From NCBI RefSeq assembly GCF_003054555.1, contig NZ_CP026304.1, positions 1,488,001 through 1,552,000 on the forward strand: 64,000 nt of DNA, in the 5' to 3' direction. The stretch comes from Streptomyces lunaelactis (lineage in GTDB: Bacteria; Actinomycetota; Actinomycetes; Streptomycetales; Streptomycetaceae). Positions 27,936-63,860 of the stretch are shown one piece after another. The position numbers and the translations under genes are program-made. Below the pieces are notes generated by a model. The model was given only the letters and a program-made list of their open reading frames with translations. It did no database searches and was not told where the DNA came from. The stretch's first letter is position 1. Every line of letters starts with the position of its first letter.

Positions 27936-29627
27936 TCAGTCCTCCGGCAGCTCGACCGGTGCGATCTCGTCGTAGAGATCACCGGGGCCGGGGTTGCTGG
28001 GGTCGGTCGTACCGCCGAATTGCGCCATCACGCCCCACACCGCGTTCAGCGCGGTCTGTACGGCGCCCTCGGCCCAGCCGGCCGTCCAGGAGATGTCGTC
28101 ACCCGCGAGGAAGATGCCGCGCTTGTCCTCGGGCAGCCTGTCCTGCATGAAGTGGGTGAACAGCCGCCGCTGGTAGCGGTAGTGGCCGGGCAGGTTCGCC
28201 TTGAACGCGCCCATGAAGTAGGGCTCGTTCTCCCAGGAGACGGTGACCGGGTTGCCGATGATGTGGCTGCGCACGTCGACCTTGGGATAGATCTCCTTCA
28301 GCGACTTGAGCATGACCTCCATCCGCTCGTTCGCGGACAGCGGCAGCCACTTGAGGCTGTCGTCGCACCACGTGTACGAGAGGCAGATGACGGCGGGCTT
28401 GTCCGGGCCGTTGTCCAGCAGATAAGTGCCGCGCGTCATCCGGTCGGTCAGCGTCATCGACATGACATCGCGTCCGGTTTCCTCGTCCTTGTCCAGCCAG
28501 AACGGCCGGTCGACCGGGACGAAGAGCTTGGACGACTCCATGTAATGAGTGCGCTCCATCGCCGTCCAGTGGTCGATCGGGAAGAGCGAGTCGTCACAGG
28601 CGATCTTGGACAGCAGCATCCAGGACTGCGCGGTGAAGATGGCCGCCTGGTAGGTGCGGATGTCACCGGAGGCGTCGGTGACGGTGATCCGGTTGCCCGC
28701 GGTGCGGTGCAGCCGGGTCACGGCCGGGCGCGGGTCGCCCTCGTGGAGGGACTTCAGGGACGTGCCCTGTGCCCAGTGAACGATCTTCTCGGGCTCGCGC
28801 TCCCAGAGCCGCAGCGGCAGCTGCTGGCTGCCTTCGACGATGCCGCGGTGGTGGTCGTCCGCCTCGGAGTAGACGACGCGCAGGATCTCCAGGATGGAGT
28901 TGGGGAAGTCGGTGTCCCAGCCGCCGGTGCCGAAGCCGACCTGGCCGAAGATCTCGCGGTGCCGGAAGGACTTGAAGGCCTCGGAGTCGCAGAGGAAGCC
29001 GTAGAACGTCTGGTTGTCGAGCTTCTCCACCAGCTTCGCCCAGATCTCACGGATCCGCGGCACATCGCGCTCGCGCATGGCGCGGTTCATGTCGGAGAAG
29101 TCGGCGCCCTCTTCGAGACAGGCGTTCCAGGCGTCCATGACATCGCGGTAGACCTGCGGCAGATCGTCGATGGTCTCGGCGTAGTGCGACTCGCCCTTGA
29201 GGTCGACGACGGTCGACGGGGTGCTGGGGGAAAGGGGGTTGGGGAAGGGCTCGGTCGTCAGGCCCACCAGGTCGATGTAGTGCTGAAGCGCCGTGGAGGA
29301 CGGCGGGAAGCGCATCGCGCCCATCTCGGCGGTCAGTTCCGGGACACAGCCGTCGAAGCCGACGGTGCGCAGCCGGCCGCCGATCCGGTCCGCCTCGTAG
29401 ACGACCGGCTTGAGGCCCATCTTCATCAGCTCGTAAGCGGCGACGAGGCCGGAGAGCCCGCCGCCGATGACCGCGACCTCGGTGCCGTGCTCGGTCGCCG
29501 GTATCTGGCCGATGCCCGCGGGGTGGGCGAGGAAGTCGTCGTACGCGTACGGGAAGTCCGGACCGAACATGGTGATCGGCGGCTGCGCGTCGGTGTGCTG
29601 GACAGCGGTGGGCACAGTGGACGTCAT
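27936..29627 (-). CDS. flavin amine oxidase / L-amino acid 2-monooxygenase-like
   Basis: A 563-aa FAD enzyme of the amine oxidase superfamily. The FAD-binding motif is VAVIGGGLSGLVAAYELMKMG near residue 50 followed by YEADRIGGRL; the C-terminal FAD motif is IFLAGDDISWTAGWAEGAV. Length and these motifs fit L-amino acid oxidases and 2-monooxygenases (lysine, arginine or tryptophan type), which convert an amino acid to the amide. The upstream nitrilase-family amidase, 51 bases before it on the same strand, would hydrolyse such an amide. The basic substrate (lysine or arginine) is inferred from the pair plus a cationic-type permease. ATG at 29625-29627. Confidence 0.85.
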   Translation of the reverse strand: MTSTVPTAVQHTDAQPPITMFGPDFPYAYDDFLAHPAGIGQIPATEHGTEVAVIGGGLSGLVAAYELMKMGLKPVVYEADRIGGRLRTVGFDGCVPELTAEMGAMRFPPSSTALQHYIDLVGLTTEPFPNPLSPSTPSTVVDLKGESHYAETIDDLPQVYRDVMDAWNACLEEGADFSDMNRAMRERDVPRIREIWAKLVEKLDNQTFYGFLCDSEAFKSFRHREIFGQVGFGTGGWDTDFPNSILEILRVVYSEADDHHRGIVEGSQQLPLRLWEREPEKIVHWAQGTSLKSLHEGDPRPAVTRLHRTAGNRITVTDASGDIRTYQAAIFTAQSWMLLSKIACDDSLFPIDHWTAMERTHYMESSKLFVPVDRPFWLDKDEETGRDVMSMTLTDRMTRGTYLLDNGPDKPAVICLSYTWCDDSLKWLPLSANERMEVMLKSLKEIYPKVDVRSHIIGNPVTVSWENEPYFMGAFKANLPGHYRYQRRLFTHFMQDRLPEDKRGIFLAGDDISWTAGWAEGAVQTALNAVWGVMAQFGGTTDPSNPGPGDLYDEIAPVELPED

Positions 29628-29678
29628 GGGGTGCGGACTCCTTGCACGGAAAGGGTGAGCGGCGAGCGGGGACGGGGT

Positions 29679-30554
29679 TCAGATCAGGGAGGCGTACAGG
29701 CCTGGGCGGCGGTCGCGCAGATACGGATTCGCTTCGCGCGATGCGCTCAGCAGGCCTGGGTCCACTTCGCCGATCACCAGCTCCTCACCGCGTCCCGCGC
29801 GGGCCCGGGTGGCGCCGTCGGGGCTCGCGAGGCAGCTGAGCCCGACGAACTCGAACTCACCCTCCGGTCCGGTCCTGTTGACGTACGCGATGTACATCTG
29901 GCTCTCGAAGGCCCGCACCGGGACGACGGATTCGGCGACGAACTGGAACGGGTGCATCTGGGCGGTGGGCACCAGCAGCAGATCGGTGCCGGCCAGGGCG
30001 TGCGCACGGACGTTCTCGGGGAACTCCACGTCGTAGCAGATCAGCATGCCGATCCGGATCCCGCCGAGCTCGGCCTGGACGACAGGCTGCTCGCCCGGGG
30101 TGAACCACTGCTGCTCGAAGCAGCCGAAGAGGTGGGTCTTGCGGTAGTTCGCGAGCCGGTCGCCGTCCGGGCCGATCAGCTGCGCGGAGTTGAAGATCCT
30201 CCCCCGGTCTTCGGCCGGGGGTACCCCCATCTCGCTTCTCCCCCAGCCTTCGGCCGGGGGGACCCCCATCTCGCTTCGCTCGCCGTCGCGCTCGGGGTAG
30301 CCGTACATGACCGCGATGCCATGGCGTGCCGCGATCTCGGCGACGGACTGCGCACCGGCGCCGTCCGCGGGCTCGGCCAGGCGCCCAATGTCGTCGCCGA
30401 TGGCGTACCCGGTCAGGTACATCTCGGGGCAGACCAGCAGCCCGGCGCCGGCGGCCGCGGCGCGGCCCGCGGCCTCGTCGAGCACCTTGAGATTCCCGGC
30501 GACCGAACCCGGTCGGCCGGAACTCTGGAGCAAGGCGGTGCGCAGCGGCGGCAT
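29679..30554 (-). CDS. carbon-nitrogen hydrolase (nitrilase family amidase)
   Basis: A 291-aa amidase. The catalytic triad is visible: Glu in LLVCPEMYLTGY (about residue 44), Lys in NYRKTHLFG and Cys in GMLICYDVEFPEN. It probably hydrolyses the omega-amino or guanidino amide made by the downstream flavin enzyme, as DavA does in lysine catabolism. Between GYPERDGE and RGRIFNSAQL the protein carries two 13-residue repeats (SEMGVPPAEGWGR and SEMGVPPAEDRGR) encoded by a tandem 39-bp palindromic DNA repeat. Family members normally run straight from DGER to IFNSA. The insert lies in a surface loop region before the catalytic Lys, and the frame stays open. Confidence 0.88.
   Translation of the reverse strand: MPPLRTALLQSSGRPGSVAGNLKVLDEAAGRAAAAGAGLLVCPEMYLTGYAIGDDIGRLAEPADGAGAQSVAEIAARHGIAVMYGYPERDGERSEMGVPPAEGWGRSEMGVPPAEDRGRIFNSAQLIGPDGDRLANYRKTHLFGCFEQQWFTPGEQPVVQAELGGIRIGMLICYDVEFPENVRAHALAGTDLLLVPTAQMHPFQFVAESVVPVRAFESQMYIAYVNRTGPEGEFEFVGLSCLASPDGATRARAGRGEELVIGEVDPGLLSASREANPYLRDRRPGLYASLI
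30199..30276 (-). repeat. tandem pair of a 39-bp palindromic repeat inside a gene
   Basis: Unit A (30199-30237) and unit B (30238-30276) are 39 bp each, with about four differences. Each has a C-run, a CTTCGGC or TCTTCGGC centre, a G-run, then ACCCCCATCTCGCTT. The first part can fold back on itself. Because 39 is divisible by three, the host frame survives. A third clear copy lies in pyrR at 63271-63309. Confidence 0.9.
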
Positions 30555-30639
30555 GGCTGACCTCGGGCAGTCTGTGCGGGTGTGAGGGAGACGTTAAGAA
30601 CGGTACGGTCCGGCGTTCCCCCCGGACAAGGCACGACCG

Positions 30640-30698
30640 TTGCGCGCAGCAGGTGGATCCGTTGCGCAATCGGCGCCCGCAGCGGTGATTCATTGCGC
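30640..30698. promoter_or_regulatory. three TTGCGC sites, candidate Lrp operator
   Basis: TTGCGC occurs at 30640, 30662 and 30693 (intervals 22 and 31 bp), 86-145 bases upstream of the nitrilase-oxidase unit. The third lies within ATTCATTGCGCG, a 12-mer also found in the permease upstream region, where three TTGCGC sites have nearly the same spacing. The adjacent Lrp-type regulator at 30765-31220 is the likely ligand. Confidence 0.6.
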
Positions 30699-30764
30699 GG
30701 GACCCGATCCGACCCTGGTCGTACGCCCCCACGGCTGCGGTCGCAGACGGCCAGGTGGCTCCCT

Positions 30765-31220
30765 CTAGGTGGGTGCGCCCGACGAGAAGCGTCTGAGCAG
30801 CGGGGAGAGCACCAGCACCGACTTGGTGCGCTCCACGAAGGGCTCGCCCGCGATGCGCTCCAGCACTCGCTCGAAGTGCCTCATGTCGGCGGCGAAGACC
30901 TGGACGATCGCGTCCGCGTCACCGGTGACGGTGGAGGCGGACGCGATCTCCGGGTAGCGCTTGAGACCGCGCTCGATGGACTCGGGCGAGGTGTTGCGGC
31001 TGCAGTAGATCTCGATGAAGCCCTCGGTCGCCCAGCCGAGTGCCTTGGGGTCCACCCGTACGGTGAAACCGGTGATGGCTCCTTCGGCGCGCAGCCGGTC
31101 GACCCGCCGCTTGACGGCGGGGGCGGAGAGGCCCACCTCGGAGCCGATGTCCGCGTAGGAGCGGCGGGCATCCTCGGCAAGGGCGTGGACGATGCGTTCG
31201 TCGAGATCGTTCAGTCGCAC
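30765..31220 (-). CDS. Lrp/AsnC family transcriptional regulator
   Basis: A 151-aa regulator with N-terminal HTH (RLNDLDERIVHALAEDARRS and VGLSAPAVKRRVDRLRAEGA) and a C-terminal RAM domain. It begins 10 bases after the stop of the amino acid permease, so the two share a transcript. Its proximity to permease, amidase and oxidase genes, and the shared TTGCGC sites in both control regions, suggest that it senses the catabolised amino acid. ATG at 31218-31220. Confidence 0.9.
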   Translation of the reverse strand: MRLNDLDERIVHALAEDARRSYADIGSEVGLSAPAVKRRVDRLRAEGAITGFTVRVDPKALGWATEGFIEIYCSRNTSPESIERGLKRYPEIASASTVTGDADAIVQVFAADMRHFERVLERIAGEPFVERTKSVLVLSPLLRRFSSGAPT

Positions 31221-31230
31221 TGCGGGTGGA

Positions 31231-32697
31231 TCACTTCTCTGCCGTGGCCAGTCGGGAGCGGCGCATGCCGTAAACGAAGTAGAACACGAGGCCGACGATC
31301 ATCCAGCCCCCGAAGACCGCCCAGGTGACGCCCGGAAGGCTGAACATCATGTAGAGGCAGAACAGCAGGCCCAGGATCGGGGTCCCCGGGAACAGCGCCA
31401 CGCGGAAGGTGCGCGGCATGTCGGGCCGGGTGTACCGGAGGATCACGACGGCCACATTGACCAGCGCGAACGCGAAGAGCGTGCCGATGCTGGTGGCATT
31501 GGCCAGCTCGCCGAGCGGGATGGTCGCGGCAAGCACACCGCAGAAGAGCGACACGATCAGCGTGTTGGCGCGCGGGGTCCCGGTGCGGGCGTCGACCTTG
31601 GCGAAGACCTTGGGGACCAGACCGTCGCGGGCCATGGCGAACAGGATGCGGGTCTGGCCGTAGAGGACGGCGAAGACGACGCTGGCGATGGCCACGACCG
31701 CACCGGCGGCGAGGACGACGCTCCAGAAGCTGTGACCGGTGACGTCCTTCATGATCTGCGCCAGGGCGGCCTCGGTGCCCTCGAAGTCCTGCCACGGCAT
31801 GGCGCCGACGGCGACCACGGCGACGAGGCAGTACAGCACGGTGACGACGAGCAGCGACAGCATGATCGCCCGGGGCAGGTCCCGCTTGGGGTTCGTCGCC
31901 TCCTCACCGGCCGTGGAGGCGGCGTCGAAGCCGATGTACGAGAAGAACAGGGTGGCCGCGGCGGCGCTGATGCCGGTCACGCCGAGCGGGGCGAGCGGGG
32001 TGTAGTTGCCGGCCTTGATGCCCATGAAGCCGATCGCGCAGAAGATCACCAGGGTGACGATCTTGACGACCACCATGATCGTGTTGACCCGGGCGCTCTC
32101 CTTGGCGCCGCGCATCAGGAACACCATGGCGAGCAGGATGACGACCAGGGCCGGGAGGTTGATGAAGCCGCCCTCGCCGAGCGGGGCGGACACCGACTCG
32201 GGGATGGTGATGCCGAGCGTGCCGTCGAGCAGCTCGTTGAGGTATTCGCCCCAGCCGACGGCCACGGCCGCGACCGAGACGCCGTACTCCAGGATCAGAC
32301 ACCAGCCGCAGATCCAGGCGACGAGCTCGCCCATGGTGGCGTAGGAGTACGAGTACGAGGAGCCGGAGACCGGGATGGAGCCGGCCAGCTCGGCGTAGGA
32401 GAGCGCCGAGAACAGCGCGGTGAGACCGGCGATGACGAACGAGATGGCAACGGCCGGGCCGGCCAGCGGCGTGGCCTCGCCGAGCACCACGAAGATTCCG
32501 GTGCCCAGGGTGGCTCCGATGCTGATCATGGTCAGCTGCCACATGGAGAGCGAGCGGCGGAGCGTGCCGCCCTCGCCCTGCCCGCCCTCGGCGACCAGCA
32601 GTTCGACGGGCTTGCGCCGCATCAGCCGACCGGCGAGCCGCAGGCTCGTGGTGGGCGATGGCGCGGTCGCGGGTGGGGCTTCGCCGTGGTCCAGCAC
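31231..32697 (-). CDS. amino acid permease (APC, cationic amino acid transporter type)
   Basis: A 488-aa transporter with 12 or more membrane segments. The first segment carries the APC substrate motif SIGATLGTGIFVVLGEA; later regions read PVSGSSYSYSYATMGELVAWICGW (landmark at about 120-143) and FFSYIGFDAASTAGEEATNP, typical of YfnA/CAT-like carriers of cationic or branched amino acids. The start is GTG at 32695-32697 with GGAG nine bases upstream. It heads a unit with the Lrp regulator. Its substrate is probably that of the downstream oxidase/amidase pair. Confidence 0.9.
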   Translation of the reverse strand: MLDHGEAPPATAPSPTTSLRLAGRLMRRKPVELLVAEGGQGEGGTLRRSLSMWQLTMISIGATLGTGIFVVLGEATPLAGPAVAISFVIAGLTALFSALSYAELAGSIPVSGSSYSYSYATMGELVAWICGWCLILEYGVSVAAVAVGWGEYLNELLDGTLGITIPESVSAPLGEGGFINLPALVVILLAMVFLMRGAKESARVNTIMVVVKIVTLVIFCAIGFMGIKAGNYTPLAPLGVTGISAAAATLFFSYIGFDAASTAGEEATNPKRDLPRAIMLSLLVVTVLYCLVAVVAVGAMPWQDFEGTEAALAQIMKDVTGHSFWSVVLAAGAVVAIASVVFAVLYGQTRILFAMARDGLVPKVFAKVDARTGTPRANTLIVSLFCGVLAATIPLGELANATSIGTLFAFALVNVAVVILRYTRPDMPRTFRVALFPGTPILGLLFCLYMMFSLPGVTWAVFGGWMIVGLVFYFVYGMRRSRLATAEK

Positions 32698-63242: not shown

Positions 63243-63860
63243 CTACTGCTCGCCGGCCGGGGCGGTCTCGCTCCCCCAGACTTCGTCCGGGGGGACCCCC
63301 ACCTCGCTTCGCTCGCCGAGCAGCACGGTGTCGCGACCGTCCTCCTCGGCGAGCAGGACCTTGACCGTCTCCCGCAGCGACGTGGGGAGGTTCTTGCCGA
63401 CATAGTCGGCGCGGATGGGGAGTTCGCGGTGGCCGCGGTCGACCAGGACCGCGAGCTGCACGGCGCGCGGCCGGCCGATGTCGCCCAGCGCGTCGAGCGC
63501 GGCGCGGATGGTGCGGCCGGAGAAGAGCACGTCGTCGACGAGGACGACCAGCCGGCCGTCGATGCCGTCACCGGGGATCTCGGTGCGGGCCAGCGTGCGG
63601 GCGGGCCGCATACGCAGGTCGTCGCGGTACATGGTGATGTCGAGGGAGCCGACCGGGATCTTGCGGCCGGTGATCTCTTCGAGCTTGTCGGCGAGCCGGC
63701 GGGCGAGGAAGACACCGCGGGTCGGAATGCCGAGAAGCACCACGTCGTCGGCGCCCTTGGCGCGTTCGACGATCTCGTGGGCGATGCGGGTCAGTACCCG
63801 CGCGATGTCGGGAGCCTCGAGAACGGGGCGGGCGACATCGGAACTGCCTTGCGTGTCCAT
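63243..63860 (-). CDS. pyrR: bifunctional PyrR regulator/uracil phosphoribosyltransferase
   Basis: A 205-aa PRTase-fold RNA-binding protein that represses the pyr operon when UMP is high. It has [23 protein letters not shown], the PRPP loop [18 protein letters not shown] and [21 protein letters not shown]. After the normal end of the fold (TVLLGER), the last 22 residues ([12 protein letters not shown] and SETAPAGEQ) come from a 39-bp palindromic repeat plus its flank, so the C-terminus is element-derived. Start GTG or ATG at 63858-63860. It heads the operon. Confidence 0.95.
63271..63309 (-). repeat. 39-bp palindromic repeat inside pyrR
   Basis: It has the same layout as the tandem units at 30199-30276: a C-run, a CTTCG centre, a G-run, ACCCCCA and CTCGCTT. 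It is translated as [12 protein letters not shown]. The insertion lies near the C-terminus, where it is unlikely to hurt the enzyme. Confidence 0.88.

What the first reader, a model, noticed from the sequence alone, without database searches (positions are those of the whole stretch)
30199..30276. Tandem 39-bp palindromic repeat translated inside a nitrilase-family gene
Two 39-bp units (three bases times thirteen codons) sit in frame in the amidase gene, adding SEMGVPPAEGWGR and SEMGVPPAEDRGR in a loop before the catalytic lysine. The same element is present in pyrR. It seems to be a dispersed element that spreads within coding regions without destroying the frame, rather like a protein-tagging selfish repeat.
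Basis: partly seen in the sequence, partly recalled or inferred. Interest (0 to 1): 0.72.

Follow-up and report, generated by a model that had tools for sequence, protein, structure and literature searches.

The report
In-frame 39-bp hairpin insertion element
A tiny 39-letter DNA element that can fold into hairpins is scattered through Streptomyces genomes and often sits inside genes, adding 13 amino acids to the protein without breaking its reading frame.

Summary
The amidase gene holds two 39-bp units that most homologs lack; pyrR in the same window holds one. The unit belongs to a hairpin family of Streptomycetaceae: 148 of 199 congeneric genomes hold the core, reversed-sequence controls 0. 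Its intragenic subtype lies directly 3' of (C)GAGCG. In 45 of 57 ortholog comparisons over 14 other host genes the carrier is longer by exactly 13 residues. Of 149 copies of this subtype, 85 lie clearly inside reading frames, forming 50 flank clusters: 42 sense, 8 antisense, against 48% sense expected from the target motif (p=2e-7); codon phase fits the target alone. The sequence covaries as a hairpin (97.7% of cells paired; at most 54% when slid). No mobilising enzyme was found; the own genome has no Y1 transposase. It works like Rickettsia palindromic elements and intragenic REPs but fails their length, tag or partner tests. New variant of a known kind. Tagging as a function, and the transposition mechanism, remain unproven.

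The parts
29679..30554 (-). host gene: carbon-nitrogen hydrolase (nitrilase family amidase), 291 aa
   Evidence: PF00795 E 7.6e-46; some sources call close homologs 5-aminopentanamidase
30277..30281 (-). target pentanucleotide GAGCG (E-R codons) directly 5' of the first unit
   Evidence: sequence; GAGCG at this site in 6 of 29 uninserted ortholog loci
30238..30276 (-). first 39-bp unit (SEMGVPPAEGWGR)
   Evidence: homolog with one unit P0005, uninserted homologs of 265 aa
30199..30237 (-). second 39-bp unit (SEMGVPPAEDRGR), tandem
   Evidence: P0001 and P0005 differ by one unit yet are identical outside the linker
30240..30260 (-). main hairpin of unit 1, 9 bp, loop GAA
   Evidence: covariation over 80 copies
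30201..30221 (-). main hairpin of unit 2
   Evidence: same, by homology
30273..30279 (-). mini-hairpin GCGAAGC spanning the target/unit joint
   Evidence: thermostable DNA mini-hairpin in the literature (PMC4686876, passages)
63243..63860 (-). pyrR, second host gene in the window, 205 aa
   Evidence: PF00156; closest uninserted homologs 192 aa
63271..63309 (-). 39-bp unit in the pyrR C-terminal tail ([13 protein letters not shown])
63310..63314 (-). target GAGCG at the pyrR unit

Best explanation
The 39-bp units are copies of a short non-coding hairpin element of Streptomycetaceae that inserts site-specifically, directly 3' of (C)GAGCG, without visible target duplication. Shown: dispersal, the 39-bp (13-residue) net gain in most hosts compared, the constant 5' GAGCG, covarying hairpin, stop-free reading, sense-strand excess, tandem change of copy number in the amidase. 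Inferred: the copies spread by transposition of a single-stranded, folded G-rich strand by an enzyme acting in trans (HUH/Y1-like chemistry is my first guess), and persist in genes because 13 extra polar residues in a turn are tolerated. In the amidase one insertion was later doubled in tandem.
For: Copies: 19 places in the own genome at up to 3 mismatches, reversed control 0; 148 of 199 congeneric genomes; 15 of 28 congeneric and 0 of 268 other genomes of the class at 1 mismatch. Insertion: amidase homologs with 0, 1 or 2 units (7-residue linker in 67 of 112 parsed of 120; 20; 33 residues), PyrR 192 against 205 aa; 45 of 57 comparisons in 14 further hosts exactly -13, all comparisons in 10 of the 14. 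Joint: C before GAGCG in 76 of 82 clusters, G after the unit in 66 of 81. Structure: 97.7% of cells paired, covariation 0.167 against 0.071 shuffled, 0 of 500; slid at most 53.6%. G.T at pair 27-37 in 61 of 81 is a mismatch on the other strand, so the G strand is the one that folds. Orientation 42:8. P0001, P0002 and P0005 identical outside the linker with 2, 2 and 1 units.
Against: No transposase was tied to the element: own genome has none of PF01797, 14 of 27 carrier genomes lack it, and 8 Y1 loci show no core at up to 5 mismatches. GAGCG pre-exists at only 6 of 29 amidase, 8 of 14 lysyltransferase-like uninserted sites, so 'target' versus 'brought in or substituted' is not settled for each host. 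Four hosts do not give -13 throughout: L184 -12, L394 -15, L403 0 of 4, L236 3 of 9. Covariation of the mini-hairpin is thin: five places change both sides, three break it. No near-identical strain pair with and without a unit was shown.
Confidence: 0.7

Rival explanations
1. Template switching: a nascent strand ending in GAGCG pairs with the GAGCG in front of an existing copy, copies the hairpin unit and returns. No transposase is needed; hairpins and short microhomology do the work.
For: Constant GAGCG microhomology at the left joint; no enzyme found; tandem unit gain or loss in the amidase is ordinary slippage.
Against: A precise 39-bp unit with a fixed right end (AG, then G in 66 of 81) is not expected if the return point is free; sense-strand excess is not predicted.
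Confidence: 0.27
2. REP/RAYT system: the unit is a REP moved by a Y1 transposase domesticated in Streptomyces.
For: Hairpin, short conserved 5' motif, no target duplication, palindromic intragenic copies as in REPs (PMC3733652 section 15). Y1 genes are commoner among carriers: 13 of 27 against 15 of 74, Fisher p 0.011 (handles G000-G100 assumed common).
Against: No GTAG or CGTC tag in the unit; own genome and 13 other carriers without PF01797; no core in 8 Y1 loci. The association may only reflect genome size.
Confidence: 0.15
3. Old shared coding sequence or a functional protein motif rather than an insertion.
For: Some insertions are shared by several species (32 of 82 clusters have 2 or more copies).
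Against: Unrelated hosts (ABC ATPase, AraC regulator, Usp, methyltransferase and others), non-genic copies, uninserted orthologs.
Confidence: 0.02
4. Transcription terminator or regulatory hairpin that spread because of its RNA function; intragenic copies are by-catch.
For: Most core copies are in non-coding flanks (76 of 120); strong RNA hairpin strand; sense bias.
Against: No T run follows the unit in the window copies; the intragenic subtype has its own leader that the intergenic types lack; a terminator inside genes would be removed.
Confidence: 0.1

Closest known systems
Rickettsia palindromic elements (RPE-1 and others)
   Same: Palindromic repeats inserted in frame in unrelated protein genes, read as a conserved peptide (PMC10969869, passages)
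   Different: About 150 bp there against 39 bp here; different taxon; here a constant GAGCG joint; no sequence kinship was tested
Intragenic REP elements (GTAG and CGTC superfamilies)
   Same: Small hairpins, mostly intergenic, some inside ORFs where single or grouped copies add residues (PMC3733652, section 15)
   Different: No GTAG or CGTC end; no Y1 gene in the own genome; the paper's text holds neither 'Streptomyces' nor 'actinobacter'
IS200/IS605 ends and their guide sequences
   Same: Insertion next to a short motif without target duplication, hairpins near the ends, guide-target pairing (PMC8266576, passages)
   Different: No tnpA, no tnpB; the pairing seen here is 2 bp across the joint with thin covariation
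Bacterial MITEs
   Same: Short non-autonomous repeats, occasional in-frame fusions (PMC10969869, passages)
   Different: No terminal inverted repeats shared by the two ends, no target duplication seen

Membership tests
REP (GTAG/CGTC) | GTAG or CGTC tetranucleotide at one end | tested here: not met
   consensus of 80 copies GAGCGAAGCGAGATGGGGGTCCCCCCGGCCGAAGGCTGGGGGAG
REP (GTAG/CGTC) | RAYT (Y1) gene in the genome | tested here: not met
   own genome 0 matches to PF01797; 28 of 101 congeneric genomes have one
REP (GTAG/CGTC) | 20-50 nt hairpin in many copies | tested here: met
RPE | in-frame insertion in unrelated genes | tested here: met
RPE | length of about 100-150 bp | tested here: not met
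   39 bp
RPE | occurrence in Rickettsia | not tested
   only the own class and named genome contigs were searched
IS200/IS605-type element | insertion 3' of a short motif, no target duplication | tested here: met
   motif pre-existing in only part of the orthologs
IS200/IS605-type element | target recognised by base pairing with a guide in the element | tested here: inconclusive
   GACCG/AAGGG 3 places and GAACG/AAGTG 2 places change together; 3 places do not pair
IS200/IS605-type element | mobilised by a Y1 TnpA | not testable with these tools
   only an association, p 0.011
MITE | terminal inverted repeats and target duplication | tested here: not met
   unit ends AAGCGAGA and TGGGGGAG are not complementary; uninserted amidase reads GAGCG-GATC
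Rfam RNA family | match to a known family | tested here: not met
   no match at E up to 1 in 29600-31000

The most novel reading that the evidence does not exclude
A minimal protein-tagging transposable unit: 39 bp, exactly 13 codons, stop-free, with a joint-spanning GNA mini-hairpin whose arm in the element matches the target it sits beside, moved on the non-template strand of transcribed genes by a still unknown single-strand enzyme, so that sense insertions dominate and dozens of Streptomyces proteins carry the same extra peptide.
Probability: 0.25. Interest if true: 0.85.

Novelty: new variant of a known kind. Interest (0 to 1): 0.6.

Why it matters
If right, Streptomycetaceae hold a second, independent case (after Rickettsia) of selfish palindromes that write themselves into proteins, with many dated insertions and uninserted orthologs at hand. 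It offers a natural experiment on which protein turns tolerate 13 extra residues, and a defined substrate (target, strand, hairpin) with which to look for the enzyme. It also explains a peptide that recurs in annotated Streptomyces proteins and would otherwise be read as a motif.

Tried and rejected
Chance repeat: rejected. RAYT partner: own genome negative, association weak. Autonomous parent among Y1 loci: 8 loci searched, no core; two flank-like 13-mers only. Selection on codon phase: rejected as unnecessary, phase fits the target (Monte Carlo p 0.40 sense, 0.21 antisense). Phage carriage: no phage match at E 0.1; plasmids: 10 records, all Streptomyces. Structure of the amidase with the insert: not obtained, structure prediction was busy. 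Hosts L177 and L133 and L358 and L382 gave no ortholog in the fetched loci; segments of L144, L125 and L322, L238 were prepared but not put into the searches. The mirror-symmetric 12-mer makes its reversed control worthless. Replication-strand bias was only eyeballed positions and is not claimed.

Full report
OBSERVATION. The window belongs to an 8.57-Mb genome, G000. The two 39-bp units at 30199-30276 are adjacent, 92% identical and in frame in a 291-aa CN_hydrolase on the minus strand.

DISPERSAL. The core CCCCCRGNCTTCGNCCGGGGGNACCCCC occurs at 19 places in the own genome with up to 3 mismatches, 10 forward and 9 reverse; the reversed pattern gives 0. At up to 2 mismatches 148 of 199 congeneric genomes hold it, from 0 to 66 copies, controls 0. 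At up to 1 mismatch it is in 15 of 296 genomes of the class, all 15 among the 28 of the same genus. Ten plasmid records, all Streptomyces, match the window stretch; no phage record does.

TWO POPULATIONS. The 125 exact core copies of those 120 stretches fall into flank types. A codon model found no coding flank on either side for 76 of 120 non-edge copies, one coding side for 25, the same frame on both sides for 18, opposite strands for 1. Of the 18, 14 carry the leader GAGCGNAGCGAGA (up to 3 mismatches). All 25 copies with that leader lie in an open frame that I judged coding from G+C by codon position; this was by eye and one (L156) is weak. The other types (for example AGGGGCGCT-core-AGGAACTGCGCGACC, or CAGCCCCGT-core-AGTTTGAGGAGCGGGG) look like parts of larger intergenic repeats.

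OWN GENOME. Besides the amidase and pyrR, sense copies in the same frame lie in a histidine kinase (L012), a family-2 glycosyltransferase (L015) and a FAD/succinate-dehydrogenase-type flavoprotein (L091, a degenerate copy). L012 and L015 have an altered or missing leader. The remaining own copies were mostly not in convincing coding flanks.

INSERTION, AND ITS LENGTH. Thirty amidase loci were inspected; the 29 orthologs lack the insert. Among 120 listed homologs (112 parsed) the linker is 7 residues in 67, and 20 or 33 residues in carriers with one or two units. P0001 and P0002 (two units) and P0005 (one unit) are identical outside the linker. A quick tree of 117 homologs needs 7 changes of the insert label, so gains at this site were repeated or losses occurred; the label includes decayed forms. 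In PyrR 3 of 120 listed homologs show the motif; two more of the same length look decayed; the nearest uninserted ones are 192 against 205 aa. Two searches with concatenated host pieces gave 57 comparisons with uninserted orthologs in 14 hosts: 45 are exactly 13 residues shorter. All comparisons agree in L178 (4), L183 (14 shown), L200 (2), L142 (6; one further ortholog carries the insert), L123 (1), L245 (3), L254 (1), L323 (4), L354 (6) and L389 (1). Against: L184 -12, L394 -15, L403 -6, -6, +3, -11, and L236 3 of 9.

JOINT. Each conserved block is 44 bp (GAGCG plus 39), yet the net gain is 39, so five bases were there before or were replaced. Uninserted sites hold GAGCG in 6 of 29 amidase loci and in 8 of 14 lysyltransferase-like loci (on the opposite strand). 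Over 82 flank clusters C precedes GAGCG in 76, and G follows the unit in 66 of 81. This is site preference; it is not proof that GAGCG was always there first.

FRAME AND ORIENTATION. From 392 congeneric genomes (121 with a match) I fetched 147 listed places and added the two window copies; the third own copy was left out. By the codon model 85 of 149 are clearly intragenic, 11 weak and 53 not (gene ends such as pyrR fall among the last). Phases of the 85: +0 59, +2 11, -0 10, -2 3, +1 1, -1 1. Grouped by flank similarity there are 82 clusters, 50 intragenic: 35, 6, 6, 1, 1, 1; one cluster has mixed calls and was counted as sense. In 441 kb of coding DNA the motif CGAGCG occurs 967 times, 464 sense. 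Phase within each strand fits this (p 0.40, 0.21), while 42 sense to 8 antisense does not (p 2e-7). Sense bias may come from selection against the antisense peptide or from a mechanism on the non-template strand; I cannot tell.

STRUCTURE. On 80 copies (59 distinct) the hairpin 22-30/34-42 and the mini-hairpin 3-4/8-9 pair in 97.7% of cells; shuffles reach 92.1% on average, slid structures at most 53.6%; covariation 0.167 against 0.071. Pairs 28-36 and 29-35 swap G-C/C-G and C-G/A-T; pair 27-37 is G.T in 61 of 81 and G-C in 18. Columns 1-31 were fixed by the search pattern up to one mismatch except its N positions, so conservation there is partly ascertainment; columns 32-44 were free. The loop GNA and the stem GCGAAGC are known as thermostable DNA mini-hairpins (PMC4686876, passages). 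Across the joint, five places change both sides together and three break the pair.

MECHANISM. The best-fitting picture is insertion of a folded single strand beside a short motif, as in IS200/IS605 and REP systems (PMC8266576, passages). The enzyme step is inference: PF01797 is absent from the own genome and from 14 of 27 carriers among the 101 genomes, though commoner in carriers (13 of 27 against 15 of 74, p 0.011). Template switching at GAGCG is the main rival.

LITERATURE. Ten searches of the held open-access library did not turn up this element; the peptide and DNA strings occur in none of its papers. Subscription papers are largely outside. Intragenic REPs and RPEs are established precedents (PMC3733652 section 15; PMC10969869 passages; PMC2635572 passages). 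PMC4681348 (passages) mentions REP elements for E. coli only in what I saw.

VERDICT. Real, and more interesting than a single-gene repeat: a target-preferring 39-bp intragenic element family. As a kind it has precedent; its length, joint, strand bias and taxon are new to me. Function of the peptide is untested.

Noticed in passing
window 27936-32697: The amidase lies beside a FAD-binding oxidase-like gene, an Lrp/AsnC-type regulator and an amino acid transporter; with close homologs named 5-aminopentanamidase this looks like a lysine breakdown cluster (lysine monooxygenase is my recall, no model passed its cut-off).
   Followed up: partly
L091 (G000:C1:5592709): A degenerate copy sits in a succinate-dehydrogenase-type flavoprotein of the own genome, at the place where another species (L236) has a clean copy.
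   Followed up: partly
L195:3322-3825: Three tandem 13-residue units at the start of an ORF of unknown family.
   Followed up: no
G370:C1:2761554-2761709: Three core copies at 64-bp spacing; L137 has two at 65 bp: an intergenic type with a larger tandem period.
   Followed up: no
L108, L109, L113 and similar: The core appears nested in another common Streptomyces repeat, AGGGGCGC...GGAACTGCGCGACC.
   Followed up: no
G084: 66 core copies at up to 2 mismatches but no match in the leader search: intergenic types expanded alone.
   Followed up: no
G000:C2:111-145: Two GAGCGAAGCGAG 12-mers 23 bases apart near the end of the small contig C2, without the core.
   Followed up: no
P0007-P0012: Amidase homologs whose linker begins like the unit but continues PQLPLGGAPRG: a different, longer derivative at the same site.
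   Followed up: no
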